This document shows positions 1,853 to 56,463 of a stretch of DNA of 64,000 nucleotides, piece after piece. The stretch is from NCBI GenBank assembly GCA_947852905.1, contig CANTVF010000004.1, positions 62,001-126,000 of the forward strand, read 5' to 3'. The DNA comes from an uncultured Tidjanibacter sp. Lineage in GTDB: Bacteria; Bacteroidota; Bacteroidia; Bacteroidales; Rikenellaceae. The stretch's first letter is position 1; every line of letters starts with the position of its first letter. The notes under the pieces are model-generated. The model searched no databases. It was not told where the DNA came from and saw only the letters and a program-made list of their open reading frames with translations. Both the position numbers and the translations under genes were made by a program.

Positions 1853-2021
1853 AAGGGGTTGTGTCAAAACGCTAAGTTTTAACGCAACCCCTTTAAGGTG
1901 TGTGAGAACGGGTAAAATGCAAGGCCGTGATTATGAAAAGCGACAGGAGTTTACAAAAAGCAAACGACTTAGCCTGATTCACGATAAAAACGCAACCGAT
2001 TGCCCGTTATGACACACAGGC
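1853..2021 (+). repeat. Dispersed hairpin element, copy 1
   Basis: One of four related intergenic elements. The head is a hairpin with 18-bp arms at 1853-1870 and 1876-1893 and loop GCTAA. The middle carries a second small hairpin (1949-1965, GTTTAC arm, 5-nt loop). The distal end reads GTTATGACACACAGG, which in reverse complement resembles the head sequence GGTTGTGTCAAAAC. There is no open reading frame. Other copies are at 38876, 54237 and (inverted) 56294. Confidence 0.8.
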
Positions 2022-2144
2022 GAATCTGAATGCCTATTTTACTCTCCGGACAAACGGTATCAGTATACGCCCTCTCCGTTCACAACAGACCGGACAACAT
2101 ATGATGCAAACCTACATCCGTATCGCGTCACGCACAAATGTCGC

Positions 2145-3494
2145 CTACTCCCGCTCCAGACGTTCCGCGATAGCACGCCCCTCTTTTTCGTAACCGGGCT
2201 TGCCGAGCAGAGCGAACATATTTTTCTTGTAGGCCTCCACGCCCGGCTGGTCGAAAGGATTTATGCCGAGCATATAACCGCTTATGCCGCACGCACGTTC
2301 GAAAAAATAGAGCAACGCACCGATATTATACTCGTCCACGCAGGGCAGCACTATGCGCATGTTGGGCACACCTCCGTCGGCATGAGCCAGCGAAACGCCC
2401 ATTTCGGCCATACGGTTGATCTCGTGCAGGCGTTTGCCCGCCACGAAATTGAGCCCGTCGGAATCTGTCTCCTCTCTGGCCACAACGATCTCGTGCCGAG
2501 GATGCTCCACGGAGACTACCGTCTCGAACATTATGCGTTCGCCTTCCTGTATGTACTGCCCCATGGAATGCAGATCGGTGGTATATGTAACGCTCGCGGG
2601 AAATATTCCGCGAGAACGTTTTCCCTCGCTTTCGCCGAACAACTGTTTCCACCACTCACCGAAATAACCGAGAGCCGGCTCGTAAGAGGCGAGTATCTCT
2701 ATCTTGTATCCGCGAGCATACAGTGTGTTACGTGCTGCGGCATATCGTGCGGCAGGATTGTAGGCAAAACCGACATCCGCACCGCAAGCCGTCCGCATGT
2801 CCTGCGCCCCGCGTACCAAAGCACGAATATCCGCTCCTGCCACGGCGAGCGGCAACAACCCTACAGGCGTCAGCACAGAATAACGCCCGCCGACATCGTC
2901 GGGTATCACGAACGTTTCGTATCCCTCCCTGTCGGCCTCGCCGCGCAACGCCCCCTTAGACGCATCGGTAACGGCCACTATGCGTTCCCGCGCGCCTTCG
3001 CGACCGTAACGACGTTCTATCTCGCCGCGCACGATACGGAAAGCTATAGCCGGCTCGGTAGTGGTACCCGACTTGGATATCACTATTGCGGCGAGCGAGC
3101 GACCACGCACCGCTTCCAGCAGCGACCACATGTAATCCTCGCTTATGTTCTGGCCGGCAAATATAACTTCCGGACCGGCGGCGCCTTTCATATACCCGAA
3201 CGGATCGCCCAAAGCCTCCATGACGGCTTTGGCGCCGAGGTATGAACCGCCTATACCTATCACCACGACCACATCGGCCAGTACGCGAAGACGGCTACCA
3301 GCAGCCTCTATTCCGTCAAGCACCTCATCCGTCAACGCTGTCGGCAACGATACCCAGCCCAGAAAACCGGCGCCCTCACCGGTACCGTCCTCCAACATAC
3401 GATTGGCTTTCTCTGCCGCCAGCGCATCTGGCGCAAACTCCCTCTCGAAACGCCGTCCCTGTCCGGCCGTTCCTCCGTATTCGAACTTTATCAT
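2145..3494 (-). CDS. pgi: Glucose-6-phosphate isomerase
   Basis: 449 residues, the usual length of the short bacterial PGI form. It interconverts glucose-6-phosphate and fructose-6-phosphate in the cytoplasm. Visible landmarks are the sugar-phosphate (SIS) motif [19 protein letters not shown] near residue 80, the [10 protein letters not shown] phosphate-binding loop near 140, the PGI signature [19 protein letters not shown] near 200, and the C-terminal signature with [20 protein letters not shown]. It is transcribed divergently from the mreB operon and separated from it by 226 bp. The first ATG of the frame gives the conserved N-terminus. Identification is secure. Confidence 0.96.
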
Positions 3495-3636
3495 AATCCT
3501 GTCCTTTCCGATTCTATTCCACCGTCCGCAAAACCCGCGCCGAAACAGCGGCTACATATATGTTCCGGACGTCATTATAATACGATGCAATTTACCATTT
3601 ATTTCGGTAAAGTTATGTATAAAGTACGCTTTTTTA

Positions 3637-3644
3637 TATATTTG
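3637..3644 (+). promoter_or_regulatory. Bacteroidota -7 promoter box for the mreB operon
   Basis: TATATTTG matches the TAnnTTTG box of the Bacteroidota primary sigma factor. It lies 77 bp before the mreB start and just after an AT-rich stretch. Placement is by pattern and position only. Confidence 0.6.
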
Positions 3645-3720
3645 TAAATTAATTGGGCATATCCATATCGGACTACCCAACCGATTGATACACGGGACTA
3701 TATACAAAAGAAAAGGACAA

Positions 3721-4740
3721 ATGGGAATGTTTTCGTTGACTCAGGAATTGGCCATAGACCTCGGAACGGCCAATACCCTAATACTATATAACGGCAAAGT
3801 GGTCGTGGACGAGCCGTCCATAATCGCAATGGACATACACACGGGCAAGGTGGTAGCCATAGGCGAACAGGCACAGCAGATGCACGGCAAGACTCACCAG
3901 AACATCAAGACTATCCGCCCGCTCAAGGACGGGGTGATAGCCGACTTCAACGCCGCCGAACTGATGTTGCGCGGCATGATCAAGAAGGTCAAGATGAACG
4001 GTCATCTGTTCAGTCCTTCGCTCCGCATGGTAATATGCATCCCTTCGGGCTCCACTAACGTGGAGATACGCACCGTACGCGAATCGGCCGAACACGCCGG
4101 AGGACGCGAGGTATACATGATATACGAGCCCATGGCCGCAGCGCTCGGCGCCGGACTCAACGTAGAGGCTCCGGAAGGCCACATGGTCATAGACATAGGC
4201 GGCGGTACGACGGAAATCGCTTGTATCTCGCTCGGCGGCATAGTATGCTCGGAGAGCATAGACGTTGCCGGCGACGTATTCACCGAGGAGATACAGAACT
4301 ATGTCCGCCAGCAGCACAACATACGCGTCGGCGACCGAACGGCCGAAAACATCAAGAAATCCATAGGGGCGGCCATTCCCGAACTGGAAGAGGCTCCGGA
4401 CGACTACGTCATCACCGGTCCCAACATTCTCACGGCACTGCCGACCACCGTATCGCTCTCCTATACCGAGATAGCCTATGCTCTCGAAAAATCGTTGCTC
4501 AAGATAGACGCGGCCATAATGAAGGTACTCGAAATGGTACCGCCGGAGCTGTATGCCGACATCGTGAAAAGCGGAATCTACCTTGCCGGCGGCGGCGCCC
4601 TCATCAAAGGTCTGGATAAACGTTTCTCGGAAAAGAACGGCATACAGTTCAACATAGCCGAAGACCCGCTGCGTGCCGTAGTGCGAGGTACGGGCATAGC
4701 GTTGAAGAACATCAACCAGTTCTCGTTCCTGATGAAATAG
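3721..4740 (+). CDS. mreB: Rod shape-determining protein MreB (actin homolog)
   Basis: 339 residues from ATG 3721, preceded by a purine-rich AAAGGAC. The upstream open extension is not conserved-looking and covers the promoter. Actin-fold ATP-binding motifs are present: phosphate-1 IDLGTANT (residue 12), phosphate-2 VIDIGGGTTEIA (near 157), and the adenosine motif GIYLAGGGALIKGL (near 285). MreB forms membrane-bound filaments that organise the elongation peptidoglycan machinery. It is the first gene of a five-gene operon encoding the whole core elongasome (MreB, MreC, MreD, PBP2, RodA). Confidence 0.97.
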   Translation: MGMFSLTQELAIDLGTANTLILYNGKVVVDEPSIIAMDIHTGKVVAIGEQAQQMHGKTHQNIKTIRPLKDGVIADFNAAELMLRGMIKKVKMNGHLFSPSLRMVICIPSGSTNVEIRTVRESAEHAGGREVYMIYEPMAAALGAGLNVEAPEGHMVIDIGGGTTEIACISLGGIVCSESIDVAGDVFTEEIQNYVRQQHNIRVGDRTAENIKKSIGAAIPELEEAPDDYVITGPNILTALPTTVSLSYTEIAYALEKSLLKIDAAIMKVLEMVPPELYADIVKSGIYLAGGGALIKGLDKRFSEKNGIQFNIAEDPLRAVVRGTGIALKNINQFSFLMK

Positions 4741-4890
4741 GGGCGTCGCGACGGAAGATTTCACGCGCCATAAAGCCGCCCGCCGGCGGCATTACGGACG
4801 GCACACGGTTGACACAAACGGCTGCCGGTTACAACAGCGAAAAGTCTCGCGACCGACTGCAATCACGGCAAGGCAAACATCGGGAAAGGA

Positions 4891-5733
4891 ATGTACAGGC
4901 TCGTCCAGTTTTTCAAAAAGTACTCTTCCGTACTCCTCTTCATAATACTCGAAGCGGGAGCTATCGGTTATTACGCCTCATCGACGAGCTATACGCGCGC
5001 GACCCTGCTCGCATCTTCCAACAAAGTAACCGCCGGGATACACGGCATATTCTCATCCATAGGAGATTACTTCACCCTCGGCCGTGAAAACAGGATGCTC
5101 ATGGAACGCCTCGCCGAGACGGAAACTCTCCTCTCGGCACTCTCCACGGCAAGAGATACCGCAACCATACCGGTCGCCGAGCCCGCCTACTACTACTCTA
5201 CGGCAACGGTCATCAGCAACTCCATTGCGCGTCAGGACAATTTCTTCGTAATAAACAAGGGGACGCGCGACGGCGTCGAAGAAAACATGGCCATACTGTC
5301 GGCCGACGGCTCCGTTGCCGGATACGTACGCAAATGCTCGGACAAATTCGCCGTCTGCATGTCCGCGCTCAACCGCGACTTCCGCATCGGAGGGCAGTTG
5401 AAAGGCAGCGAATATTTCGGCTCGGTTTACTGGGACGGCACCGACGCCCGCGAAATGACGATGGTGGATATTCCTACGTATGCCGACGTTTCGGTCGGCG
5501 ACACATTGCTATCGGCCTATTCTTCGAGATTCCCGCCCGATACGTTCATAGGAACCGTATCGTCGGTAAAGGAATCCGAAGACGGCACATACTACATTCT
5601 AAGAATACGTCTCGGAGCACGCATGAACGCTTTGGGCAACGTACTGCTCGTGAAATATACGGATTACGAAGAACTCGAAACTCTGGCCGGCGAATATTTC
5701 GCCGACTACGACACAAGAAACCCGCAAAAATAG
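4891..5733 (+). CDS. mreC: Rod shape-determining protein MreC
   Basis: 280 residues. An N-terminal membrane anchor (about residues 10-30) is followed by a helical region with EN.MLMERLAETETLL typical of the MreC coiled coil, then the periplasmic beta domain. That domain contains NSIARQDNFFVINKGTRDGV and later GTVSSVKESEDGTYY, both family-typical. MreC links MreB and MreD to PBP2 in the periplasm. It lies 150 bp downstream of mreB, and mreD starts 10 bp after its stop, supporting one operon. Identification is secure from both sequence and order. Confidence 0.94.
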   Translation: MYRLVQFFKKYSSVLLFIILEAGAIGYYASSTSYTRATLLASSNKVTAGIHGIFSSIGDYFTLGRENRMLMERLAETETLLSALSTARDTATIPVAEPAYYYSTATVISNSIARQDNFFVINKGTRDGVEENMAILSADGSVAGYVRKCSDKFAVCMSALNRDFRIGGQLKGSEYFGSVYWDGTDAREMTMVDIPTYADVSVGDTLLSAYSSRFPPDTFIGTVSSVKESEDGTYYILRIRLGARMNALGNVLLVKYTDYEELETLAGEYFADYDTRNPQK

Positions 5734-5743
5734 GACGGCTGAA

Positions 5744-6256
5744 ATGCACAGAAGAGGTGAATACGTATTGGTTTTCGCAGCTACGGTTTTGTTGCAGGCA
5801 TTCCTGTTCGACAACCTCAACCTGTCGCCATACCTATACCCGCTCATATACGTGGGATTTTTGTTGCTGCTTCCCACCGGCATGAATCACGCCCTACTGA
5901 TTCTGTGCGGATTCGTCACCGGTGTAACCGTAGATTTCCTTTCAGGCACAGCCGGACTGCACACCATAGCATCTACGGCAACGGCCTTCATACGTCCGGC
6001 CACAATCAACCTGACGATCGGTAAAGACACCGCAAACGAAAACGTGATGCCGTTACCGATAAATGTCGGGCGCGGCAAATGGCTCAAATACGCGGCGCTC
6101 GCCGTTTCGATCCACTGCATCATATTTTTCTGTTTTGAGGCCGCCACCACGGCATTCTTATGGTACACGCTCCTGAGGGCGGCCGGTAGCGCACTCGCCA
6201 CGTTCCTTCTCGTATGGTTCGCGGCTGTCATATATCCGGTACGCGGTTCGCATTGA
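5744..6256 (+). CDS. mreD: Rod shape-determining protein MreD
   Basis: 170 residues with five or six hydrophobic segments and the MreD-like acidic/helical pattern GFVTGVTVDFLSGTAGLHTIAS in the central region (positions about 58-80). It is an inner-membrane partner of MreC. MreD is poorly conserved in sequence, so the call rests on topology, length and its place between mreC and the PBP2 gene. The stop is 38 bp before the chosen start of the PBP2 gene. Confidence 0.9.
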   Translation: MHRRGEYVLVFAATVLLQAFLFDNLNLSPYLYPLIYVGFLLLLPTGMNHALLILCGFVTGVTVDFLSGTAGLHTIASTATAFIRPATINLTIGKDTANENVMPLPINVGRGKWLKYAALAVSIHCIIFFCFEAATTAFLWYTLLRAAGSALATFLLVWFAAVIYPVRGSH

Positions 6257-6294
6257 CAAGGTGCTATACCGAAGAACAAACACAAACCCCACGC

Positions 6295-8109
6295 ATGAAC
6301 AACAGAGCCAAAATAATATCGCTGGCAGTCGTCGCGGCATTCGCGATTCTGGTTCTGCGCCTGTTTTACATACAGGTGATCGACAGTTCATACAAATACG
6401 ACGCCCAGAACAACGTACTACGCCGTGAAGTGCAGCATCCACCGCGCGGCGAGGTATACGACCGCAACGGAGAACTGCTCGTCAGGAGTATCGCCTCCTA
6501 TGACCTGATGGCCATACCACGCGATGTCAAGGAGTTCGACACGTTGACGCTCGCACGCATAGCCGGCGTAACTCCGGAAAAGCTGAAACAGGAACTCGCC
6601 AAAGCCGCCAACTATTCCCGGCGCCGTCCCTCGGTGATCGTCAAACAGATGAGCCTCGAATCCAAACTGCTGTTCGACGAAGGCGACTTCTCCGGTTTCT
6701 ATACCGTATACCGCACGATGCGCTCCTATCCGCGCAAGATAGCCGGCAATCTGCTCGGCTACATAAGCGAAGTGGATGCCGCTACGATAGAACGCGACGA
6801 CTACTATCAGACAGGCGACTACCGCGGCATGTCCGGGATAGAACTGACCTACGAAGATGTACTGAGGGGCGAAAAGGGAATATCCGTCAGCGTAGTGGAC
6901 GTACACGGTATAACCAAAGGACCGTACATGGACGGCGCCGCCGATATAAGGGCCGTACCCGGCAAGGCCATAACCACCTCGCTCGACGCACGGTTGCAGG
7001 AGCTCGGCGAAGAACTCATGGAAGGTAAGGTCGGCAGTATCATAGCCATAGAGCCGTCCACCGGCGAAATACTCGTCATGGTCAGCAGCCCCGGCTACGA
7101 TCCGGACGAACTCGTCGGACGCGACCGCGGCAACAATTACATGAAACTGCTCGGCAATCCGCGCCGGCCGCTGTTCAATCGCGGCGTAATGTCCCGCTAT
7201 CCGCCCGGATCGACCTTCAAGGTAGTCAACGGTCTCATGGCATTGCAGGAGGGATCTGTAACCGGCAATCAAAAATATCCGTGTCACGGCGGCTATACCG
7301 TAGGCCGGGGACTCAAATGCCACAACCACTTCTCGCCCGTCAACATGCGTCAGGCCGTACAGACTTCGTGCAACACATACTTCTGCTATGTATTCCGCGA
7401 CTTCATAGACAACCAGAAATTCGGCGACCCGAAACAGGCTCTCGACGTATGGAACGAATACCTGTACAGTTTCGGTTTCGGTCGCAGCCTCGACAGCGAC
7501 CTGTCCGGCGAACTCTCCGGTTACGTGCCGACACGCGAATATTACGACAAGGCCTACCACAAACGGTGGAACTCACTGACCATATTGTCGCTCTCGATAG
7601 GTCAGGGAGAGTTGGGATGCACGCCGCTGCAGATGGCCAATCTCGCCACCATAATAGCCAACCGCGGATATTATTATACGCCGCACATCGTCAAACGCAT
7701 AGAAGGGAGAGATTCGATAGACAGCCGTTTCTACGAACGGCACCGCACCATGGTCGAAAGCCGCCACTTCGACGTAATAGTCGACGGCATGTACGACGCG
7801 GTACACAAAACAGGAGGTACCGGCTGGCGCGCCTACGTTCCCGGCCTCGACATATGCGGCAAAACCGGTACTGCGGAAAATCCACACGGTGCAGACCACT
7901 CCACATTCATGTGCTTCGCACCGAAGGACGACCCGAAGATAGCCGTATCGGTGTATGTGGAACACGGAGGTTTCGGGGGATCGGTCGCCGCGCCCATAGC
8001 GAGCCTCATAATAGAACAATACCTGACCGACACCATAACGCGTCCCGAAATGGTGGACGCCGTAAAACAAACGACCATACCCTATCCGTACTATGACAGG
8101 CAAAAGTAA
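6295..8109 (+). CDS. mrdA: Penicillin-binding protein 2 (elongation transpeptidase)
   Basis: 604 residues from ATG 6295. The open frame reaches back to 6214, but that would run into mreD, and the chosen start gives a basic tail plus transmembrane helix (residues 9-25). The N-terminal dimerisation domain is followed by the transpeptidase domain. The SxxK motif is in YPPGSTFKVVNG, with the catalytic serine about residue 307. SxN is in QTSCNTYF and KTG in CGKTGTAENP. It crosslinks peptidoglycan during lateral growth together with RodA. Its last codons overlap the rodA start by 17 bp, indicating translational coupling. Confidence 0.96.
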   Translation: MNNRAKIISLAVVAAFAILVLRLFYIQVIDSSYKYDAQNNVLRREVQHPPRGEVYDRNGELLVRSIASYDLMAIPRDVKEFDTLTLARIAGVTPEKLKQELAKAANYSRRRPSVIVKQMSLESKLLFDEGDFSGFYTVYRTMRSYPRKIAGNLLGYISEVDAATIERDDYYQTGDYRGMSGIELTYEDVLRGEKGISVSVVDVHGITKGPYMDGAADIRAVPGKAITTSLDARLQELGEELMEGKVGSIIAIEPSTGEILVMVSSPGYDPDELVGRDRGNNYMKLLGNPRRPLFNRGVMSRYPPGSTFKVVNGLMALQEGSVTGNQKYPCHGGYTVGRGLKCHNHFSPVNMRQAVQTSCNTYFCYVFRDFIDNQKFGDPKQALDVWNEYLYSFGFGRSLDSDLSGELSGYVPTREYYDKAYHKRWNSLTILSLSIGQGELGCTPLQMANLATIIANRGYYYTPHIVKRIEGRDSIDSRFYERHRTMVESRHFDVIVDGMYDAVHKTGGTGWRAYVPGLDICGKTGTAENPHGADHSTFMCFAPKDDPKIAVSVYVEHGGFGGSVAAPIASLIIEQYLTDTITRPEMVDAVKQTTIPYPYYDRQK

Positions 8110-9541
8110 CAAAACGGCGGAAAGCGGACTCGACTGGGTATCGGTGGCCATATTCTTCGGCCTGATGATAATCGGATGGCTGAACATATACGCCGCCGTA
8201 TTCGACGAATCCGCAACGGGAGGCTTCACATTCTCCTCCCGATACGGCTCGCAGCTCGTCTGGATAGGCATATGCACGCTGGCGGCAATAGTCATAATGC
8301 TGATAGACGAAATATACTATCACGTACTCGCCTACCCGATATATTTTCTGATGCTGCTCGTGCTGCTGGTAACGCTCGCCGTCGGCACTACTGTCAACGG
8401 CGCACAATCGTGGCTACGCATAGGCGGCTTCTCGGTACAACCGGCAGAGTTCGCCAAATTCGCCACGGCACTGGCATTGGCGCGCTATATGAGCTCATAC
8501 AGTTTCTCGATGAGCGACTGGAAAAGCAAACTGGCTGCCGCCGCCATATTCGGCGTACCTATGGTCATCATTCTGCTGCAAAACGACGCAGGATCGGCAA
8601 TAGTGTTCGCCTCGTTTCTCGTCGTATTCTACCGCGAAGGATTCAACGGCTGGTTTTACGTGGCCGCAGGAATGTTGGTATTCCTTTTCGTATTTTCGTT
8701 CATTTGGACGCCGACAGTACTTCTGGCCGCCATCATCGTGATATGTACCGCCATAGAAGGTATAATGAACGGTGGCTGGAAAAGGAACATACGCTATCTC
8801 GCCGCCGTTGGATTCGTATCCGCCACGATATGTCTTGCAGCATCGCTCATCTCCGGACGCGTGCTCGACTATTATTGGTTTCTGCTCGGCAGCGCCCTCG
8901 CATCGCTGGCCGCGGTCGGTATATACGCATGGCGTACCACACTGTACAACATATTCATCAGCATCGGCATGCTGGTCGGCTCCATAGCATTCACCGGCAT
9001 GGTGGATGCCGTATTCGCCCACATGAAACTACACCAGCAGAAACGTATCCTGAACCTGCTCGGCGTGGAAAGCGATCCACAATTCTGGGGTTACAACGTC
9101 AACCAGTCCAAAATAGCCATAGGATCGGGCGGATTCTTCGGCAAAGGTTATCTTCAAGGCACGCAGACGAAATACGATTTCGTTCCGGAACAAAGTACCG
9201 ACTTCATATTCTGCACGGTAGGAGAAGAGTGGGGTTTCGTCGGCTCGGTCATAGTACTCGGACTGTTCTGCTGGCTGATACTCCGTCTCATACGCATGGG
9301 TGAACGCCAACAGGAGGCTTTCGGACGGGTATACTGTTACGGAGTAGCGGCAATATTCCTCTTCCACGTACTCGTCAACGTCGGCATGACGATAGGCATC
9401 ATGCCTGTCATAGGCATTCCGCTGCCGCTGTTCAGCTACGGCGGCTCGTCGCTGCTCGCCTTCACGCTGCTCTTTTTCGTCGCCGTGAAACTCGACTCTC
9501 ACGGGCGCGAAGGAATAGCCCGTTCACGCAACCTGCAATAG
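8093..9541 (+). CDS. rodA: Peptidoglycan glycosyltransferase RodA (SEDS family)
   Basis: 482 residues with about ten transmembrane segments. SEDS landmarks are seen: GAQSWLRIGGFSVQPAEFAK near residue 105, QNDAGSAIVF near 163, a late KIAIGSGGFFGKGYLQGTQ near 342, the E-rich FVPEQSTDFIFCTVGEEWGF near 363, and the C-terminal PLPLFSYGGSSLLAF. RodA polymerises lipid II and pairs with PBP2, encoded just upstream with a 17-bp overlap. It is somewhat longer than E. coli RodA (370 residues). The extra sequence is a membrane segment insertion around residues 190-280, a form common in Bacteroidota. Confidence 0.95.
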   Translation: MTGKSNKTAESGLDWVSVAIFFGLMIIGWLNIYAAVFDESATGGFTFSSRYGSQLVWIGICTLAAIVIMLIDEIYYHVLAYPIYFLMLLVLLVTLAVGTTVNGAQSWLRIGGFSVQPAEFAKFATALALARYMSSYSFSMSDWKSKLAAAAIFGVPMVIILLQNDAGSAIVFASFLVVFYREGFNGWFYVAAGMLVFLFVFSFIWTPTVLLAAIIVICTAIEGIMNGGWKRNIRYLAAVGFVSATICLAASLISGRVLDYYWFLLGSALASLAAVGIYAWRTTLYNIFISIGMLVGSIAFTGMVDAVFAHMKLHQQKRILNLLGVESDPQFWGYNVNQSKIAIGSGGFFGKGYLQGTQTKYDFVPEQSTDFIFCTVGEEWGFVGSVIVLGLFCWLILRLIRMGERQQEAFGRVYCYGVAAIFLFHVLVNVGMTIGIMPVIGIPLPLFSYGGSSLLAFTLLFFVAVKLDSHGREGIARSRNLQ

Positions 9542-9620
9542 AAAGCATTACAGTAGCCGCAAACCCAAGAAAACAGAAAAAATATTTCGTAAAACGATAA
9601 CAACCCACATGTTTTTACGA

Positions 9621-9628
9621 TAACTTTG
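9621..9628 (+). promoter_or_regulatory. Bacteroidota -7 promoter box for the M13 peptidase gene
   Basis: TAACTTTG, matching TAnnTTTG, lies 50 bp before the start codon at 9678. It separates this gene from the rodA operon. Confidence 0.6.
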
Positions 9629-9677
9629 TGCCTTGCATACCAATGTAGAACATAAATCTCTTTTAACAATAATTAAT

Positions 9678-11726: not shown

Positions 11727-11782
11727 CACATCTCGGTGCGTCATTCGCACATCATATAACAACAAACACGAAACCGTTATCG

Positions 11783-11820
11783 GAGGCGGCGCTCACAGAG
11801 AGTGCCGCCCCCGTTTTTTT
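11783..11820 (+). terminator. Rho-independent terminator of the M13 peptidase gene
   Basis: The GC-rich stem GGCGGCGCTC / GAGTGCCGCC has one mismatch and a 6-nt loop, followed by a run of seven T. It sits 57 bp after the stop codon. Confidence 0.8.
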
Positions 11821-11893
11821 ATTACGGCAATACGGGCAACCGGACTCAATAGTCAAAAATCAAAATGTACCCGCAACTAACGACTCTTTTCGC

Positions 11894-11901
11894 TACATTT
11901 G
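11894..11901 (+). promoter_or_regulatory. Bacteroidota -7 promoter box upstream of tag
   Basis: TACATTTG matches TAnnTTTG. It is about 170 bp before the tag start, which implies a long leader or an additional closer promoter. Confidence 0.45.
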
Positions 11902-12064
11902 CAAAGACGGAACATAAATCTCCGGATATTATCCTTATCCCGCATCGGCACTACATAAGCCCCATGCGAACAATATACCGCAGACAGGAAAGATGCGAAC
12001 AGATATCGCCACAGCTTTACACTGTTGCAGACAATAAAGAATATAAGGAAAATTACGAATCGAC

Positions 12065-12637: not shown

Positions 12638-12713
12638 TACTTCACATACGACCGGACATAGCATCTGCCGTAAAGGATAGTACTCCACATACGACCGGAC
12701 ATAGCATCTGCCG
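12619..12713. repeat. 43-bp tandem direct repeat at the 3' end of tag
   Basis: Two nearly identical 43-bp units (12619-12661 and 12662-12704, one C/T difference) are followed by a 9-bp partial third unit. The first unit contains the tag stop codon, so the array begins inside the coding sequence and extends into the intergenic region. Confidence 0.9.
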
Positions 12714-38875: not shown

Positions 38876-39044
38876 AAAATGGGTTGTGTTAAAACTTAGC
38901 GTTTTAACACAACCCATTTTAAGATGTGTAAGAACGGTAAAATGAAAGGCAGTAAGTGTGAAGGCGGCAAATGTTTACGGAAAGTAAACGACTTAGCCCG
39001 AATCACTATACAAACGTAGCGGATTGCCAGTTACGACACACCGG
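38876..39044 (+). repeat. Dispersed hairpin element, copy 2
   Basis: The head hairpin is perfect: 20-bp arms at 38876-38895 and 38901-38920 with loop TTAGC, the reverse complement of the copy 1 loop. The internal hairpin GTTTAC-GGAAA-GTAAAC is perfect at 38973-38989. The distal end is TTACGACACACCGG. It lies between the Hdr operon promoter region and the 3' end of the dihydrofolate reductase gene. Confidence 0.85.
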
Positions 39045-39100
39045 CTTTTAACTTACATACATAAAACGGCGGGACTCTCCCAGTCCATGCTCCGTACATT

Positions 39101-39586
39101 TTACCCTATTCTCTCCCAATCGGTATACTCGAACGGATAGGGAAAATTCTTTCCAGATTCATGACGTTCCCGCGACAGCAGACGCCACCGGCTGCGATCC
39201 CACTCCGGGAAATGGGTGTCGCCCTCATAGTCGTGCTCTACGGTCGTAAGATACAGTTTGTCGGCCAAAGGCATTGCCTGCCGGTATATCTGTCCGCCGC
39301 CCGTAATGAACACCTCCTCCGATGCCGGGAAAAGCGCGACGGCCTCCTCTATCGAGCCTACCACGGTAACTCCCTGCGGAGCATAACCGCTTTGACGGGT
39401 GACGACGACATTCGTCCTGTTGGGCAACGGCTTGCCCAACGACTCGAAAGTCTTGCGTCCCATGATTACGGGATGTCCGCTGGTTATCCTTTTAAACCTT
39501 TGCAAATCTTCCGAAATATGCCACAGCAGCGAATTGCCGCCACCTATGACGCCGTTCCGGGCAACGGCCACTATAATTGAAATCAT
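39101..39586 (-). CDS. folA: Dihydrofolate reductase
   Basis: 161 residues, normal length. It reduces dihydrofolate with NADPH. The N-terminal active site is [20 protein letters not shown] (residues 8-27), and [20 protein letters not shown] follows near 37 (NADPH binding). [20 protein letters not shown] lies near 92, with [17 protein letters not shown] after it. The start overlaps the thyA stop by 4 bp, so the two are coupled. This makes biochemical sense because ThyA produces the dihydrofolate that this enzyme recycles. Confidence 0.96.
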
Positions 39587-47343: not shown

Positions 47344-47366
47344 GCGACGGATTACGAAATAATGCC

Positions 47367-47399
47367 AAAAGTCCTCCCCGCAACGGGGAGGACTTTTTT
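47367..47399 (+). terminator. Rho-independent terminator of the first large lipoprotein gene
   Basis: The perfect 14-bp stem AAAAGTCCTCCCCG / CGGGGAGGACTTTT has a CAA loop and a T tract, 24 bp after the stop. Confidence 0.9.
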
Positions 47400-47439
47400 A
47401 TTTGTCCGGCCAACCTCTGCCGAAACACATAAAACCCGC

Positions 47440-47619
<180 letters not shown>

Positions 47620-48147
47620 GACGACAACGATACAATAAACCGCACCGGAAGTCCGACGTCATTACACGTAAATCGGAAAACATCACCATAAAGTAAGCTG
47701 ACCGGAATTACTCTCGCGGGCAACCATACTTACATACACACCATTTCGCTTTCGACAAGGCTTGCGAATGAGCAATACGAAAGTATTGCGTTAAAGGCAG
47801 CTCTGTCCGCCACTGTCGATACTCGTCATTTCCCATGACAGACCATATCACTGCACTAATTATTTCTTGTTATCTTGTGTACGATTAAATATTAAATGGC
47901 TATCTTTGTAAGGTTTGCCGCCATGACCGGAAGTCGTATGACGTAGTGCGAGAAGTCGCTTACGGCTGCACTGCGGAAAGTCGCGATAAATTTTAAATAA
48001 ATTTAGGTGGACGTGCAACATATGAGGACGCAGATGCGTCTTTATACGGTAACGATACGAAACAAACAGCGTCCGGACGGATGCCGGACTTAAACGGAAA
48101 TCAGTTCATAACAATTTTATTATTTTAATTTTAAACAGCTTTTTACT
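47620..48147. other. Intergenic region and long leader of the second large lipoprotein gene
   Basis: It holds a perfect GAAA-tetraloop hairpin (47772-47789, GCAATAC stem) and the promoter box at 47901. A leader of about 235 nt follows, with several short stems, for example GACGC-AGAT-GCGTC near 48030. No coding sequence is evident. Confidence 0.5.
47901..47908 (+). promoter_or_regulatory. -7 promoter box for the second large lipoprotein gene
   Basis: TATCTTTG matches TAnnTTTG and predicts a long leader of about 235 nt before the start at 48148. Confidence 0.55.
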
Positions 48148-49845: not shown

Positions 49846-49867
49846 TCCGTACATACCACACAAATCC

Positions 49868-49899
49868 AAGCGCAGCCCGAAATCGGGCTGCGCTTTTTT
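49868..49899 (+). terminator. Rho-independent terminator of the second large lipoprotein gene
   Basis: AAGCGCAGCCCGA / TCGGGCTGCGCTT form a perfect 13-bp stem with an AA-only loop, ending in six T. Confidence 0.9.
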
Positions 49900-50309
49900 C
49901 GTATTTCATTTTTATGGAAAACACCACCAAATACTATCCAAATGCGAGCGGCAATACAGCCGGAAATGGAGGGTTACGGGATATTTCTGAACAGTCCGGA
50001 TATCTAAAACATTACCGCAGGTTTAAATATACAAATCCATAACTGTCGTAAGCATACCGGTATGATGCGAGCCTCCTACTCCTACCCCCAATGCCAGTAA
50101 CCGGACACGTCGTACGATGCGGAAATAAAACAAATCCGCAAGTCCGCAAAATTTGTTGGACATAATCCGGTATTTTTATTAACTTTGTGGCGGAAAAATG
50201 TAGACCGCCGCCAAATGCGCCAAAATACGGACAGCGTACAATAATCCGCATTCAGGACAGCGCCATTCCGGTCTACTATTGTTGAATCTTATACGGCACT
50301 GTATGGACG
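49900..50309. other. Intergenic region upstream of mqnA
   Basis: It contains the promoter box at 50180. No gene or RNA was recognised in the remaining sequence. Confidence 0.5.
50180..50187 (+). promoter_or_regulatory. -7 promoter box for mqnA
   Basis: TAACTTTG matches TAnnTTTG. A TTTG at 50152 is a possible upstream element, though the spacing is a little long. Confidence 0.5.
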
Positions 50310-51080
50310 ATGGCCATTCTCAATACAAAGATCGCTGCGGTATCATATCTGAATACCGTGCCGTTTGTTTACGGCATTCAGCACGCTGATTCCCTGCGTG
50401 CCGAACTTCTGTTGGCACCCCCTGCCGAGTGTGCCAGAAATTACCTTTCGAAAAAAGCCGACATAGCCCTCGTCCCCGTAGGTTCGTTGCCGCTTTTCAA
50501 CGACGCCGAAATCGTCACCAATTATTGTATAGGTGCGGAAAAAAGCGTACGTACCGTCACGGTAATGAGCAACTCGCCCATAAGCGAAATCGAAAACCTC
50601 TGGCTCGACTCCCACTCCATGACTTCGGCATTGCTCGTCAAGATACTCGCTGCCGAACTGTGGAACATAAAACCGCAGTGGAAGGAACTCTCCGATTACT
50701 CTATAGTCCAGTCTTCGGCCGAAAAGGACGCATTTTTGCTCATCGGAGACAAGGTATTTCCGTATGAAGGAAAATTCCGCTACACATACGATCTGGCGGA
50801 CTGCTGGCGGGAGCTGACCGGCAAACCGTTCGTATTCGCCGTATGGATAGCCCGCAAATGTACCGATCCGGAGTTGATAGATGCACTCGAAGCCGCGCTC
50901 GAAACCGGCGTCGAACGAATCTGGGAAGCCATAGTGGAATACGGCCACGACGACAAGGATTATGCATATCCGTATCTTACCGAAAACATAGATTTTCTTT
51001 TCGACTATCAAAAACGACAGGCGCTCGCGCTCTACTGGGACAAAGGCCAGAAGTTCGCCCCACGCGCCAATCCCGGCTGA
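50310..51080 (+). CDS. mqnA: Chorismate dehydratase (futalosine-pathway menaquinone synthesis)
   Basis: 256 residues. A periplasmic-binding-protein-like fold without a signal peptide, as in the MqnA/MqnD family. The N-terminal KIAAVSYLNTVPFVYGI, the KADIALVPVGSLPL stretch (near residue 52) and DLADCWRELTGKPFVFAVWI (near 160) are family-typical. MqnA dehydrates chorismate to 3-enolpyruvylbenzoate, the first step of the futalosine route to menaquinone. MqnD is a close relative, but the SYLNTVPF start favours MqnA. The rest of the pathway is not in the window. Confidence 0.88.
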   Translation: MAILNTKIAAVSYLNTVPFVYGIQHADSLRAELLLAPPAECARNYLSKKADIALVPVGSLPLFNDAEIVTNYCIGAEKSVRTVTVMSNSPISEIENLWLDSHSMTSALLVKILAAELWNIKPQWKELSDYSIVQSSAEKDAFLLIGDKVFPYEGKFRYTYDLADCWRELTGKPFVFAVWIARKCTDPELIDALEAALETGVERIWEAIVEYGHDDKDYAYPYLTENIDFLFDYQKRQALALYWDKGQKFAPRANPG

Positions 51081-51193
51081 AGGAGTGTTTACGGGTTTTA
51101 GTTCCCCGCTGTGTCGACCGCACTGCCGGTCACGGACAAGGGGATCAGTCAACGTAATACACAACCGCCCGTAACGGGTTAAAAGCCGAGAAC

Positions 51194-52144
51194 ATGATCA
51201 CCATATATCTGAAACAATACAACAAGATCGTCCGTAATCCGGACCTCGAAATATTCGAGGAATTGGGTTATGACGACATCTTGTGGATCGATCTGCTGAA
51301 TCCGTCGATCAAGGAACAGAAAGAAGTCGAAAACTTCATGGAACTGAGTCTTCAGACACGACAGCAGGTGGAAGAAATCGAGACATCCTCGAAATATTCT
51401 GAAACGGAAAACGCCGTATTCTCGAATGCCGACTTTTTCGTAACGTCGCCTGAAGGAATCAAGGTGGAGCCGGTATCGTTCGTCATAAGCGAAGGCGTAC
51501 TCATCACGGTACGTCAGTCCGAATTCCGCACATTTACCGAGGCCGAAAAGAAATTACAGATAAACTCGCGGTCGTACACTACCGGATACCACCTGTTCGT
51601 TTCGATATTGGAGATACGAATAGATGCCGACGCCGACGCCGTGGAATCGGTCTCGAAACAGATCGCAGCCCTCAGTAAGGACATAGGCGGAAAAGACAAG
51701 GTCTCGCAGGAAGAGATCAAACACATAAGCCGCCTACAGGAAAGCACCATGATGATCCGCGAGGTCATTTTCGACCGGCAGCGCCTGCTCTCCGGCATAC
51801 TGAAGAGCGAACGTTTCCCGAACGATATTTACCCCCGTCTGCAACTCATGCTGCGCGACGTGAACTCGATAGTCAGCCATGCAGACTTCAGCTTTGAACG
51901 ACTCGACTATCTGCGCGAAACCGCACTGGGACTTATCAATCTGGAATTGAACAATACGACCAAGATATTTACCATGGCATCGGTGTTCTTCATGCCGGCG
52001 ACGCTCATAGCGAGCATATACGGCATGAACTTCGCATTCATGCCGGAACTGCACTCCAAATTCGGCTATCCGGGAGCATTGTTGTGCATGGTGCTGGTGT
52101 CGTTCGTATGCTACCGTTTTTTCAAACACAAAAAATGGCTCTGA
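51194..52144 (+). CDS. corA: Magnesium/cobalt transporter CorA
   Basis: 316 residues. The large cytoplasmic N-terminal domain is followed by the stalk helix (LQESTMMIREVIFDRQRLLS) and two C-terminal transmembrane segments. The pore signature GMN is in ASIYGMNFAFMPEL (near residue 277), followed by the conserved outer-loop glutamate. The protein ends in a basic tail, KHKKWL. CorA forms a pentameric channel for Mg2+. It lies 113 bp after mqnA with no clear terminator between them. Confidence 0.95.
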   Translation: MITIYLKQYNKIVRNPDLEIFEELGYDDILWIDLLNPSIKEQKEVENFMELSLQTRQQVEEIETSSKYSETENAVFSNADFFVTSPEGIKVEPVSFVISEGVLITVRQSEFRTFTEAEKKLQINSRSYTTGYHLFVSILEIRIDADADAVESVSKQIAALSKDIGGKDKVSQEEIKHISRLQESTMMIREVIFDRQRLLSGILKSERFPNDIYPRLQLMLRDVNSIVSHADFSFERLDYLRETALGLINLELNNTTKIFTMASVFFMPATLIASIYGMNFAFMPELHSKFGYPGALLCMVLVSFVCYRFFKHKKWL

Positions 52145-52198
52145 AACGCTCAAGATACAAGTCTCGCGTGAAGAGCAAACGTATAAACTTTTAAGGTC

Positions 52199-52972
52199 AT
52201 GGCTACCAAACTTTACGAAAACATAATCTTCGGACCGGTACACAGCCGACGTCTGGGACTGTCTCTGGGTGTCAACCTGCTCCCTCTGAATTGTAAACTG
52301 TGTTCGTTCAACTGCATATATTGCGAATGCGGATGGACCGAAAGCGGACACGCACCGCGTTTCAACCGACGTGAAGATGTCGCCCGGCTGCTGAAAGAGA
52401 AACTTCAGGAAATGTCCGCGGCAGGCACTCCGCCCGACGTGATAACATTCGCCGGCAACGGAGAGCCCACCATGCACCCCCTGTTCGAGGAGATCATCGA
52501 TGACGTAATCGGCATCCGCGACCAGTACGCTCCGGAAGCAAAGGTATCAGTACTAACCAACGGTACCATGATAGGCCGCGAAAGCGTGAGACGTGCGTTG
52601 ATGCGCGTGGACAACAACATCGTAAAACTCGACTCGGCGTTCGACGAAACCGTTCGCCTGATAGACGAGCCGCTCGGCGCATACAGCGTGGCCGAAACGG
52701 TGAAATTCATGAAAATGTTCGACGGCAGTCTTATCGTACAGACCATGTTCCTGCGCGGCGTGTTCGACGGCAAAACGGTAGACAACACCACGGAACGCGA
52801 AGTCGACGCATGGCTATCACTGATCGGAGAGATACGCCCTCGTCAGGTGATGATCTACACGATAGACCGCGACACCCCTGCGCCTGATCTCGAGAAAGTT
52901 CCCGTCGCAGAATTGAACAAGATAGCCGACCGGGTACGTGCGCTCGGCATAGAGTGTTCCGTTGCCGGATAA
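52199..52972 (+). CDS. Radical SAM protein, COG0731-like
   Basis: 257 residues. The radical-SAM cysteine motif CxxxCxxC is in CKLCSFNCIYCECGW (near residue 37). The GGE-like element is in ITFAGNGEPTMHPLFEEI (near 82), and later VSVLTNGTMIG and NNIVKLDSAFDE complete the TIM-barrel pattern. The N-terminal IIFGPVHSRRLGLSLGVNLL is typical of the group related to wyosine-type or tRNA-modifying enzymes and PFL-activase-like proteins. The substrate is unknown. It is 32 bp upstream of prfB. Confidence 0.88.
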   Translation: MATKLYENIIFGPVHSRRLGLSLGVNLLPLNCKLCSFNCIYCECGWTESGHAPRFNRREDVARLLKEKLQEMSAAGTPPDVITFAGNGEPTMHPLFEEIIDDVIGIRDQYAPEAKVSVLTNGTMIGRESVRRALMRVDNNIVKLDSAFDETVRLIDEPLGAYSVAETVKFMKMFDGSLIVQTMFLRGVFDGKTVDNTTEREVDAWLSLIGEIRPRQVMIYTIDRDTPAPDLEKVPVAELNKIADRVRALGIECSVAG

Positions 52973-53004
52973 TCCTCGACCACCCACACTCCTACGAAAA
53001 CAAA

Positions 53005-54117
53005 ATGATAACGACCGAACAGATCAAAGAGCTCGTCAAACGGAGCGAAGCCCTGCACCGCCACCTCGCCATAGACGACAAGATGATAGAATTGGACGAG
53101 GAACAGTCCAAAACCCTTGCGCCCGACTTCTGGGACAAACCGGAAGAGGCCGAACGGCAGCTCAAGAAAGTGGCCGGCATAAAAAGCTGGATCGACGACT
53201 ACCGCAAAATAGAGAGTCTGTGCGCCGACCTCGAACTGATGCCCGATTTCGTCCGTGAAGGCGGAGCGTCGGAAGAAGAGCTCGACACGCTCTACGGCGA
53301 CACACTCTCACGTATCGAAGCGCTCGAAATGCGCAACATGCTACGCGGCGAGGAGGACAAGATGGGAGCCATAATGGACATAAATTCCGGCGCAGGAGGC
53401 ACCGAAAGTCTCGACTGGGCTTCCATGCTGCTGAGAATGTATACGAGGTGGGGAGAACTGAACGGTTACAAGGTGCGTATCGCCGACATGCAACCCGGCG
53501 AGGAGGTCGGCGTCAAGTCGGCCACCATAGAATTCGAAGGGGACTATGCCTACGGATTTCTAAAAAGCGAAAGCGGCGTACACCGTATGGTGCGCCTCTC
53601 GCCTTTCAACGCCAACAACAAACGTCAAACCACGTTCGCATCGGTATTCGTATCGCCGGCCGTGGACGATACCATAGAGATAAACATCAACCCGGCCGAC
53701 ATAGAATGGGACACCTACCGTAGTAGTGGTGCGGGCGGTCAGAACGTAAACAAGGTAGAAACCGGAGTACGTCTACGATACAGTTCAAAGGATCCGGATA
53801 CGGGGGAGCCTATCGAATACCTGATCGAAAACACCGAGACGCGGTCACAGCTCATGAACCGCGAAAATGCCATGCGTATACTCAAATCGAAACTGTACCA
53901 GAGGGAACTCGACAAGCGACAGGCATTGCAAAACCAGCTCGAAGGCCAGAAGAAAAAAATAGAATGGGGTTCGCAGATACGCAGCTACGTTTTCGACGAC
54001 CGCCGTGTCAAAGACCACCGCACCGGACACCAGACCTCCGACGTGGAACGTGTCATGGACGGTGAAATAGACGATTTCATAAAAGCCTATCTAATGGAAT
54101 TCGGCGCACAGGCCTGA
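53005..54117 (+). CDS. prfB: Peptide chain release factor 2
   Basis: 370 residues from ATG 53005; the frame extends 17 codons upstream, into the end of the radical SAM gene, without conservation. The stop-codon recognition tripeptide SPF is in RLSPFNANNKRQTTF (near residue 195) and the catalytic GGQ in SSGAGGQNVNKVETGVRL (near 240). The protein recognises UGA and UAA stop codons. The frame is continuous through the region of codon 20-30, where many bacteria have the CTTTGA programmed +1 frameshift; here HRHLAIDDKM is read in frame, so autoregulation by frameshifting is absent. Confidence 0.95.
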   Translation: MITTEQIKELVKRSEALHRHLAIDDKMIELDEEQSKTLAPDFWDKPEEAERQLKKVAGIKSWIDDYRKIESLCADLELMPDFVREGGASEEELDTLYGDTLSRIEALEMRNMLRGEEDKMGAIMDINSGAGGTESLDWASMLLRMYTRWGELNGYKVRIADMQPGEEVGVKSATIEFEGDYAYGFLKSESGVHRMVRLSPFNANNKRQTTFASVFVSPAVDDTIEININPADIEWDTYRSSGAGGQNVNKVETGVRLRYSSKDPDTGEPIEYLIENTETRSQLMNRENAMRILKSKLYQRELDKRQALQNQLEGQKKKIEWGSQIRSYVFDDRRVKDHRTGHQTSDVERVMDGEIDDFIKAYLMEFGAQA

Positions 54118-54236
54118 GCAACAGCCATTAACGAACGACATGACGCCGCGAAATGATTCGTGCGGCGTACAAATTCCGGGAAACGGAGAAACGGAAAAAC
54201 ATACATGCCGACAGTATCTTCCAACACGTCAGTAAT

Positions 54237-54404
54237 AAATGGGTTGTGTCAAAACGCTAAGTTTTAACGCAGCCCATTTAAGTTTTATACAAACCGGGCA
54301 AAATGCAATGCCGTGAGTGTGAGGACAACAAGAATTTACAGCAAGTAAACGACTCCGTCCGCTTCACGATAAAAACGCAGCAGATTGCCCGTTGCGACAC
54401 ACCG
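54237..54404 (+). repeat. Dispersed hairpin element, copy 3
   Basis: The head hairpin is at 54237-54279 (arms AAATGGGTTGTGTCAAAAC and near-complement, loop GCTAA). The internal hairpin ATTTAC-AGCAA-GTAAAC is at 54334-54350. The distal end is TTGCGACACACCG. It lies between prfB and the convergent small lipoprotein gene. Confidence 0.85.
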
Positions 54405-54534
54405 TCTCGTCATATTATTATGGTGTTGTCAGTATAATGACCTCCCGACCCGACTCACCCCGACAACTATGTCCGGCAGTCGACAACGACAGCCGTGAAG
54501 CACTTTCCCAAGGCTCCCCACCAGCTTATAACCG

Positions 54535-55074
54535 TTACGGAAAAGTCTGGCCGTCGGCTGCGATGCGGATGGTACATTTGCGCGGAAGTCCGCCAGCCGT
54601 TTCGGCCGGAAGCTCGAACTCCGCAACCATATCCAACATTATTGGCTGATAAGCCGGAGAACAACGCGTATCGCGGATGCCGCGCACCACATCGGCTTCG
54701 AAAGAGAGATTTTCAGTGAATAGTTCATCTACAAATTCTCCGAAGCGGAAAGATACCACACCATGCAGGTCGAGATCGACAGCCTCTATAGTTCCGGACA
54801 AAGGTACATTATACACTTTAAAATACAGGTCGTTATCGCCCGAAACATAAATATCGCATTCTTCACCGTTTTCCTGTATGGAAACTTGCGCCTCGAAAGC
54901 CTCGCAAAATTCGGCCAATCCCTCTATCGTACCTGTCCCGAAATAATACCCGGTAGCGGTAGACATAAGCGTTGCTTCATAATCTTTCAGAAACCCGCAC
55001 GGATCGAAAATCCTGCACCCGGTCTGAAGCGTACACAGCACCGCTATACAACAGATCATGTAAATCTTTTTCAT
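54535..55074 (-). CDS. Small lipoprotein, second of a tandem paralogous pair
   Basis: 179 residues from ATG 55074. The signal MKKIYMICCIAVLCTLQTGC gives a lipidated protein. The C-terminal half contains PIMLDMVAEFELPAETAGG followed by RKCTIRIAADG, matching PVMLDLVAEFDMPAVNAGE and RRCTIRVEADR in the upstream gene. A central GYYFGTGTIEGL corresponds to DFYGYGTITCSD there. Beta-rich; no domain is recognised. It is separated from the paralog by 157 bp and transcribed in the same direction. Confidence 0.78.
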   Translation of the reverse strand: MKKIYMICCIAVLCTLQTGCRIFDPCGFLKDYEATLMSTATGYYFGTGTIEGLAEFCEAFEAQVSIQENGEECDIYVSGDNDLYFKVYNVPLSGTIEAVDLDLHGVVSFRFGEFVDELFTENLSFEADVVRGIRDTRCSPAYQPIMLDMVAEFELPAETAGGLPRKCTIRIAADGQTFP

Positions 55075-55231
55075 ACACCACATATTTAAATTTTATGCCG
55101 AATGGCCATCTTCAATATCGGGACGCCTCGATTGCACAAGAATTTTGCCGTATCGTCTGAGACAAAAATAGGACAACCCAATAAAAATCCTACAGTACTC
55201 AACTGTAAAACATCATAATACCCATACTCGC

Positions 55232-55765
55232 TTACGGTCGCACTACAGGAGTAATCTCCCTGTCTGCCTCGACACGAATCGTACACCTGCGGGGCTGCTC
55301 GCCGGCATTCACGGCAGGCATGTCGAATTCCGCTACCAAATCCAACATTACAGGAACAGTCATCGGCTGGAAACGGGTACGACTGCCTTGCATTATGGTG
55401 AGTCGGAAAAGCAATTCCTGCGTCACATCGCCCATATCGGTAAAATAAAACGGGAACTCCTTATCTATCTCAAGCCATACGGCTTCATCGGTATCGGACA
55501 ACGGAATATTCTGCACGCCGAAAACATAAATTCCATCGTACACATGAACCGAAAGAGCGCACATACCCTCACCGACATCCGAGATGCACACCTCCGCTCT
55601 AAATGTATTATGTCGGCCATCGCTGCACGTTATCGTTCCGTAACCATAGAAGTCGCCCACTGAAATCGGAGGCAGTTCGCGTTTTCCACCGAAATCCCAA
55701 CTGTTCCAACAACCTGTCAACGACAGGCATAACGTCGCACAAAAAATCGCATACCATCTCTTCAT
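55232..55765 (-). CDS. Small lipoprotein, first of a tandem paralogous pair
   Basis: 177 residues from ATG 55765, where the signal peptide MKRWYAIFCATLCLSLTGC starts; the open frame extends 24 codons further without conserved features. The mature protein is beta-rich with a cysteine in CTIRVEADREI shared with its paralog. Function unknown. The pair probably arose by tandem duplication and has diverged in the central part (VHVYDGIYVFGVQNIPLSDT here, VSGDNDLYFKVYNVPLSGT there). Confidence 0.78.
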   Translation of the reverse strand: MKRWYAIFCATLCLSLTGCWNSWDFGGKRELPPISVGDFYGYGTITCSDGRHNTFRAEVCISDVGEGMCALSVHVYDGIYVFGVQNIPLSDTDEAVWLEIDKEFPFYFTDMGDVTQELLFRLTIMQGSRTRFQPMTVPVMLDLVAEFDMPAVNAGEQPRRCTIRVEADREITPVVRP

Positions 55766-55837
55766 ACACGTAACATTTAAAGTTAAACCCTCAAGACGGA
55801 ATCCGGAAATCACAGTCCCTGAACGACGCCTCATCAT

Positions 55838-56293
55838 ATAGACGTATCAAGCAAAGATTTCGTTGCATCGATTTCCCCAAAAACGAGAAATACAGGAGAT
55901 AAAAACAGTTAAATATCGCAATCGTCATTATACGAAACACAGATACGAACAGGTCATGCCTGCCGCACGTCAGCACGTAATCAACCCAGTCCGAAAATAC
56001 CGTATAACCGTCTGCACACTTTCACTTCTACCCTAACGACAGGCACAAGAGATAGCATGCACAGCAACCAGTCGTCACTGTCCGGAAACACCATATCACC
56101 GGCCGCATACATGCTTCTCATGTTTCCCGAACGACAAACACGCGCTGCAACCAATACCACACCGTTGTCGCCTATAGGACAGCACAGTCATCAGGTACCG
56201 TCAAGGACGATTGGCGCGTATCAGGCTAAAGATCAGGCACCAGCATAGTCAGTCATCGGGTACATCCGTCGAGACACCGACTTATAAAAACAT
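55838..56293. other. Intergenic region without recognised genes
   Basis: Upstream space of the small lipoprotein genes. No supported coding sequence or RNA was found up to the inverted hairpin element at 56294. Confidence 0.5.
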
Positions 56294-56463
56294 GACGGGT
56301 TGTCATAACGTACTGTCCGCTACGTTCGTATCGTGACTCGGGATAAGCCAGTTTACTTTCCGCAAACTTATGTAACCCAACACTCATGGCTTTGTATTTC
56401 CCCCGTTTCTTACAAAACTTCAAGGGGTTGCGTCAAAACGTTAAGTTTTGACGCAACCCCTTG
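56294..56463 (-). repeat. Dispersed hairpin element, copy 4 (inverted)
   Basis: In opposite orientation to the other three. The head hairpin at 56423-56463 has perfect 18-bp arms (AAGGGGTTGCGTCAAAAC) and loop GTTAA. The internal hairpin is at 56351-56367 (GTTTAC / GCAAAC). The distal end GTTATGACAACCCG is at 56294-56308. It lies 41 bp past the frr stop codon, so its head hairpin could also act in 3'-end formation. Confidence 0.85.

What the first reader, a model, noticed from the sequence alone, without database searches (positions are those of the whole stretch)
1853..56463. Four-copy dispersed element of about 170 bp with head hairpin, internal hairpin and inverted ends
Seen directly: copies at 1853-2021, 38876-39044, 54237-54404 and, inverted, 56294-56463 align along their whole length. 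Each starts with a 41-45 bp hairpin built on GGGTTGTGTCAAAAC. Each carries a second hairpin (GTTTAC, 5-nt loop, GTAAAC) in which three of the changes keep G-T or G-C pairing. Each ends in TTAYGACACACCGG, which resembles the head in inverted orientation. All copies are intergenic. Inference: a MITE-like non-autonomous mobile element, or a family of structured RNAs spread by one. The pairing-preserving changes favour selection on structure. No transposase is in the window.
Basis: partly seen in the sequence, partly recalled or inferred. Interest (0 to 1): 0.78.

Follow-up and report, generated by a model that had tools for sequence, protein, structure and literature searches.

The report
ERIC-like mobile repeats reused as terminators
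The four copies belong to about fifty in this bacterium's genome, the remains of a small piece of jumping DNA with relatives in many other Bacteroidota, and one end of each copy seems to have been kept as a signal that stops gene transcription.

Summary
The genome (unnamed; same family as an Alistipes) holds about 50 full-length copies, not four. Relatives that I read lack them and have empty sites with hairpins of their own. It is a fossil MITE family with two fates. The head hairpin keeps pairing by compensatory change (30 double changes against 6.6 shuffled) and often sits just after stop codons; the 120-bp body does not (25 against 20). So the head probably serves as a terminator while the body decays.

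A body model finds relatives in 41 of 393 Bacteroidales genomes: one conserved palindromic core, different terminal repeats per subfamily. In some relatives these ends equal those of ISNCY_1-type insertion sequences, within one genome too, and 15 of 18 scorable copies have matching target duplications: MITEs mobilised in trans.

A Bacteroidales-only profile over 196 kb of E. coli K-12 returns three ERIC-type elements at the top (E 2e-7 to 1.5e-4; next 3.2), but the signal rests on a 22-bp core hairpin. Five transposase families searched are absent from this genome.

The parts
1853..1893 (+). Copy 1, head hairpin (contains the left terminal repeat); likely terminator
1897..2018 (+). Copy 1, palindromic ERIC-like body; right terminal repeat at its end (copy 1853-2021 in all). 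Gene at 2145-3494 (minus, glucose-6-phosphate isomerase) reads into the tail
38878..38919 (+). Copy 2, head hairpin
38923..39042 (+). Copy 2, body (copy 38878-39045 in all). Gene at 39101-39571 (minus, dihydrofolate reductase) reads into the tail
54238..54278 (+). Copy 3, head hairpin, 120 bp after the stop of prfB (52954-54117)
54282..54402 (+). Copy 3, body (copy 54238-54406 in all)
56422..56462 (-). Copy 4, head hairpin, 42 bp after the stop of frr (56505-57068, minus), which reads into it
56297..56418 (-). Copy 4, body (copy 56294-56462 in all)

Best explanation
The unit is a fossil MITE of about 170 bp: a left end folded into a head hairpin, an ERIC-like palindromic body, and a right end (consensus ends GGGGTTGTGTCAAAAC and, inverted, GACGGTGTGTCATAAC). 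It was copied in bulk by a transposase acting in trans, in a lineage split off from its known relatives, and then stopped. Copies near gene 3' ends survived. The head hairpin now works as an intrinsic terminator, mainly for the gene before it, and is held in pairing by compensatory mutation, while the body decays. Shown: copy number, patchiness, empty sites, head compensation, lack of clear body compensation, position after genes; in relatives, target duplications and ends shared with ISNCY_1-type insertion sequences. Inferred: termination itself, and that a transposase of a similar kind moved the subfamily of this genome, whose ends differ from those of the insertion sequences found.
For: About 50 copies with near star-like divergence. 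Matches in 7 of 200 family genomes, 2 of 22 listed same-genus genomes. No element after prfB in 5 of 5 relatives read, nor after frr in the 4 of 8 where I could place the stop. Head pairs: 30 double changes against 6.6 +- 2.2 shuffled, broken 74 against 111 +- 3.6; body 25 against 20.1 +- 3.7 and 336 against 347 +- 6.1. Upstream gene reads into the head in 43 of 49 copies, 18 of these 43 with the stop 16-27 bp before it; 29 of 47 convergent, 0 divergent, against 4 of 48 convergent junctions in the window. Head folding -24.1 kcal/mol against -8.9 for random 49-mers. In relatives: 15 of 18 scorable copies with identical bases on both sides (shuffled 2.4, maximum 8); ends equal to ISNCY_1-type insertion sequences, within G279 (17 of 18 bases) and at both ends within G471 (first 15 bases; 19 of 21).
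Against: No target duplication detectable in this genome. No match here to PF12762, PF01797, PF01609, PF05598 or NF033593, so the mover of this subfamily is not seen; other families were not searched and a draft assembly may hide one. Only about three T follow the head on the forward strand. One relative (L156, G053) has after prfB a terminator whose stem shares GGGGTTGCG/CGCAACCCC with the head, so the head may descend from a common kind of terminator. A cruder gene caller gave 38 of 49 and 6 divergent; in 27 elements of other genera the upstream gene reads into the head in only 15. No RNA data.
Confidence: 0.72

Rival explanations
1. A family of functional structured RNAs (regulators or leaders) in which the whole 170 bp is under selection at each place.
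For: Strong predicted fold of the consensus; body palindrome strongly covarying between subfamilies; conserved core motifs.
Against: Within this genome body pairs are not compensated beyond chance; no Rfam match; absent from most of the genus; copies lie after genes, not before them.
Confidence: 0.08
2. The head is a native kind of terminator of this lineage and only the body is mobile; bodies inserted beside, or travelled with, terminators.
For: Body-like matches without a matching head in G122, G027 and G138; headless elements in G279; one relative with a similar terminator stem.
Against: In this genome no head without a body was found except one 48-bp match at a contig end; heads with bodies share the same sequence in several genera; in the TAG-ended subfamilies the left terminal repeat is the head's left arm and the target duplication lies outside the head.
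Confidence: 0.12
3. A REP/BIME-type repeat moved by a RAYT (Y1) transposase.
For: Palindromic, intergenic, after genes.
Against: No Y1_Tnp match in six element-bearing genomes, with the control ringing in 5 of 14 named genomes; much longer unit; duplications in relatives.
Confidence: 0.03

Closest known systems
ERIC (enterobacterial repetitive intergenic consensus; IRU, RU-1)
   Same: Intergenic palindrome of similar length (127 bp; the body here about 120), central core hairpin GGAGnTTACnnnnGTAAnTGAC, terminal inverted repeats, target with TA (PMC2229807 part 1).
   Different: Outside the 22-bp core no significant similarity; ERIC has no separate head hairpin in the copies read; other ends; other phylum.
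MITECca01 of Cardinium (Bacteroidota)
   Same: Small non-autonomous element tied to an insertion sequence by shared ends (PMC9769881, passages).
   Different: About 240 bp, IS982 family, one strain; no ERIC core or head mentioned in the passages seen.
Porphyromonas gingivalis MITEs (MITE464/PgRS, BrickBuilt) and ISPg4
   Same: Copies in G371 and G505 end in GAGACTGTTGCA, the end listed for ISPg4 and MITE464/PgRS (PMC4596501 Table 2, passages).
   Different: Those are described as built of 41- or 23-nt tandem repeats; the ERIC-like core is not mentioned in the passages seen.
ISNCY_1-type insertion sequences (NCBIfam NF033593)
   Same: Same terminal repeats and TANNTA-type flanks as some subfamilies.
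   Different: Encode a transposase; do not contain the body.

Membership tests
MITE | short, non-coding, many dispersed copies | tested here: met
   50 copies of about 165 bp
MITE | terminal inverted repeats | tested here: met
   21 alignments
MITE | target-site duplication | tested here: inconclusive
   not in this genome; 15 of 18 scorable copies in relatives
MITE | ends shared with an autonomous element | tested here: inconclusive
   yes in G279 and G471; no partner found in this genome
MITE | empty sites in relatives | tested here: met
   5 of 5 after prfB, 4 of 4 placed after frr
ERIC | central core hairpin | tested here: met
   three top hits of the profile in K-12 are ERIC-type, E 1.9e-7 to 1.5e-4
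ERIC | sequence similarity over the whole 127 bp | tested here: not met
   no hit with the core masked; weak pairwise scores
REP/RAYT | Y1 transposase in the genome | tested here: not met
   0 of 6 genomes
Intrinsic terminator (head) | stable G+C-rich hairpin after a gene's stop | tested here: met
Intrinsic terminator (head) | U-tract after the hairpin | tested here: inconclusive
   about three T forward; T-rich on the other strand through A-rich left flanks
Intrinsic terminator (head) | terminates transcription | not testable with these tools
   needs RNA 3' ends
Known structured RNA | match to an Rfam family | tested here: not met

The most novel reading that the evidence does not exclude
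ERIC of enterobacteria and these Bacteroidota elements are one ancient superfamily: a conserved palindromic core, recognised by a host factor or needed for transposition, that swaps its terminal repeats and so rides on different transposases (ISNCY_1-type in some lineages, an IS5-like one in others), with copies reused locally as terminators. That would name the type of transposase to look for behind ERIC.
Probability: 0.35. Interest if true: 0.86.

Novelty: new variant of a known kind. Interest (0 to 1): 0.7.

Why it matters
ERIC is widely used for strain typing (own knowledge), yet I met no mobiliser for it in the searches and the passages. Relatives with the same core hairpin, 82, 121 and 82 matches per genome in three genomes, clean duplications and insertion sequences with equal ends make the movement of such elements testable in the laboratory. 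The two-speed decay inside one genome (head compensated, body not) is a clear case of a mobile element's end being kept as a regulatory part. The searches listed no description of such a family in Bacteroidales; the library lacks most subscription papers.

Tried and rejected
Rfam: only two tRNAs in the window at the curated threshold; below it, for copy 1, only unrelated eukaryotic families. Plasmids and phages: no match with copy 1; viral contigs: 0 for the tail pattern. Target duplications in this genome: none. Insertion into a hairpin loop: flanks no more complementary than shuffled. Partner transposases in this genome: none of five families. In G505 the stretches around six DDE_Tnp_1 matches show GAGACTGTTGCA once, as the start of another element copy, not as the ends of an insertion sequence. 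Insertion-sequence ends were recognised in 7 of the 10 over-cut-off NF033593 loci. First ERIC comparisons were weak: pairwise Z 2.6 and 3.4, below the best of 1000 shuffles; a 21-row profile did not list ERIC; model R2 gave 13.6 bits on the core alone. Only the order-wide profiles were significant. A tie of A-rich left flanks to converging genes: p 0.084, not significant.
Full report
Observation. The window lies in a 2.24-Mb, 17-contig draft genome. BLAST with copy 1 found 40 long places and a covariance model from 41 copies found 50 (90 matches, namely 50 over the whole model, one 48-bp match at a contig end, and 39 partial ones over the palindromic heads of those copies on the other strand; 150 of 413 candidates scored). 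Mean pairwise identity of the 41 is 0.72, near the 0.69 expected for a star-like burst.

Relatives. Of 200 genomes of the family, 7 matched a consensus copy, the own genome included; among the 22 same-genus genomes listed, 2 did (few candidates scored per genome). Exact tail matches in a named collection lie in two uncultured Bacteroidales MAGs and one uncultured Alistipes MAG, 5 stretches; one contig of the latter has the length and element of G151, a genome of the same family as the window's, so the host is probably of the Alistipes family (inference). The 4.1-kb region with copies 3 and 4 matched 22 of 23 genus genomes, own included. In five relatives read after prfB, and in the four of eight where I could place the frr stop, there is no element; by eye each shows a hairpin of its own there. 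One of them (L156, G053) has a stem GGGGTTGCG/CGCAACCCC like the head's, the others are unlike it.

Two fates within one genome. The consensus folds into a 41-bp head hairpin and a long body palindrome. Head pairs: 30 cells changed on both sides with pairing kept, against 6.6 +- 2.2 in 500 shuffles (maximum 16); broken cells 74 against 111 +- 3.6 (minimum 100). Body pairs: 25 against 20.1 +- 3.7, and 336 against 347 +- 6.1. The count of structure pairs on the joint structure gives 89.9% of cells paired in the head and 69-85% in the body helices. Divergence from the consensus is 0.126 in head stems, 0.161 in the body arms, 0.185 inside the body and 0.437 in the head loop. So the head is maintained and the body, in this genome, is not visibly so. 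The counts use 41 of about 50 copies, those BLAST found, plus window copy 4.

Position. With a codon-usage caller trained on the same stretches, the upstream gene reads into the head in 43 of 49 copies; in 18 of the 43 the stop lies 16-27 bp before the head; of 47 copies with both neighbours called, 29 are convergent, 18 co-directional, none divergent. In the window only 4 of 48 gene junctions are convergent. A cruder longest-ORF caller gave 38 of 49 and 6 divergent. In 27 elements of other genera the upstream gene reads in for 15 (longest-ORF caller), so the bias may be special to this lineage. In the window, copies 3 and 4 lie after prfB and frr; copies 1 and 2 have their tails toward the 3' ends of the genes for glucose-6-phosphate isomerase and dihydrofolate reductase. 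Heads fold at -24.1 kcal/mol on average (range -36.9 to -8.9) against -8.9 for random 49-mers of the same loci. Left flanks are A-rich and right flanks T-rich over 7-9 bp; the tie to a converging gene is not significant (p 0.084).

The superfamily. A body model (R2, 21 rows) matched 41 of 393 Bacteroidales genomes in 33 of 205 genera; an order-wide model (R3, 50 rows) matched 36 of 392 genomes of the phylum in 5 of 179 genera. Both used stricter filters and 9 scored candidates per genome. Searched more fully, G279, G284 and G471 hold 82, 121 and 82 matches. The copies read share one architecture: left end, usually folded into a head hairpin; palindromic body with ACAAGGC, the core GGAGnnTACnnnnGTAnnTGAC and AACGCAG; right end. 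The core stem covaries (TTTAC/GTAAA, CGTAC/GTACG, TGTAC/GTACA, CATAC/GTATG). Over 50 rows 93.4% of cells pair against 71.2% shuffled, and 260 cells changed on both sides against 83.6 +- 6.9 (the structure came from the same alignment). Ends differ by subfamily: GGTTGTGTCAAAAC here, TAGTGYC..AAGAAAAC, TAGWGTYTGTCNATAA, GAGACTGTTGCA, and a headless AAGGGGACTTCTAAAAAT form in G279.

Mobility. Among 47 elements examined, 18 had TAG...CTA ends that my pattern recognised; the two bases outside are identical in 15 of 18 against 2.4 in shuffles (maximum 8 in 10000), with TA beyond them in 16 of 18 on either side. Insertion sequences with an ISNCY_1-type transposase (NF033593; L232 332 bits over a cut-off of 325) have ends of the same kind: TAGTGCCACTAAGAAAAC in G279, TAGTGTCTGAAAGAAAACT in G242, TAGTGTCTGTCCATAA in G284, TAGAGTCTGTCAATA and TAGAGTTTGTCTATAAAGTCG in G471. 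Four element ends match an insertion sequence of another genome over 18 of 18 bases, and the G279 element matches that genome's own over 17 of 18; a G355 element reaches 15 of 18. In G471 one subfamily, read from two copies each cut by a contig end (L367, L370), has the first 15 bases of the left end and 19 of 21 bases of the right end of that genome's own insertion sequence, whose two ends differ. Five insertion-sequence loci tested do not contain the body; a sixth locus has an element beside the transposase gene. Against a simple rule: NF033593 matches at E<=0.001 are not enriched in element-bearing genomes (14 of 41 against 131 of 393), and 5 of 10 genomes with an over-cut-off match show no element. 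Copies in G371 and G505 end in GAGACTGTTGCA, the end given for ISPg4 in PMC4596501 (passages). This genome has no match to five transposase families; the subfamily here looks dead, though a draft assembly may hide a copy.

ERIC. The body recalled the enterobacterial ERIC. A 50-row profile of Bacteroidales elements only, run with all filters off over four K-12 stretches (196 kb), gives three top hits: between metR and metE (E 1.9e-7), pgk and fbaA (6.6e-5), ybhI and ybhJ (1.5e-4); the next is 3.2 (a 68-row profile agrees). The last two stretches were chosen because ERIC lies there in other strains; the first was blind, and I call it ERIC by its core. Reversed K-12 gives 1.3 at best and 50 column-permuted models 0.051 at best. 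With the 22-bp core masked none of the three is among the ten best rows. So what is shown is a shared core hairpin at a similar relative place, not full-length homology; convergence or exchange of a module is possible. Narrower comparisons were negative or weak.

Literature. Seen: PMC2229807 part 1 of 3; passages of PMC4596501, PMC10969869, PMC9769881, PMC5771137; search listings. The 2024 MITE review places ERIC in Enterobacteriaceae and Vibrionaceae and has no word beginning 'Bacteroid' in its main text.

Verdict. A MITE family, part of a widespread ERIC-like superfamily of Bacteroidota that my searches did not find described, with its head probably reused as a terminator in this genome.

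Noticed in passing
L364, L365 (G284) and L371 (G471), interior of the element: Short palindromes (such as CCTGTCTACCGACAGGTAG, seen by eye) sit inside the core or body of some copies, as if a REP-like repeat had inserted into the MITE.
   Followed up: no
L089, L090, L091: Shortened forms: L091 keeps only the two ends as a 40-bp palindrome, L089 lacks most of the body, L090 has the right end alone.
   Followed up: partly
G009, contigs C119, C225, C92, C114: Four matches to the head hairpin alone, without the body, in another genus of the family: heads left behind after loss of the body, or terminators of the same sequence.
   Followed up: no
L156 (G053), after prfB: A terminator stem GGGGTTGCG/CGCAACCCC without element, like the head of copy 4; it may hint at where the head came from.
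   Followed up: no
G000, whole genome: No match to any of five transposase families searched, which is unusual beside some 50 MITE copies.
   Followed up: partly
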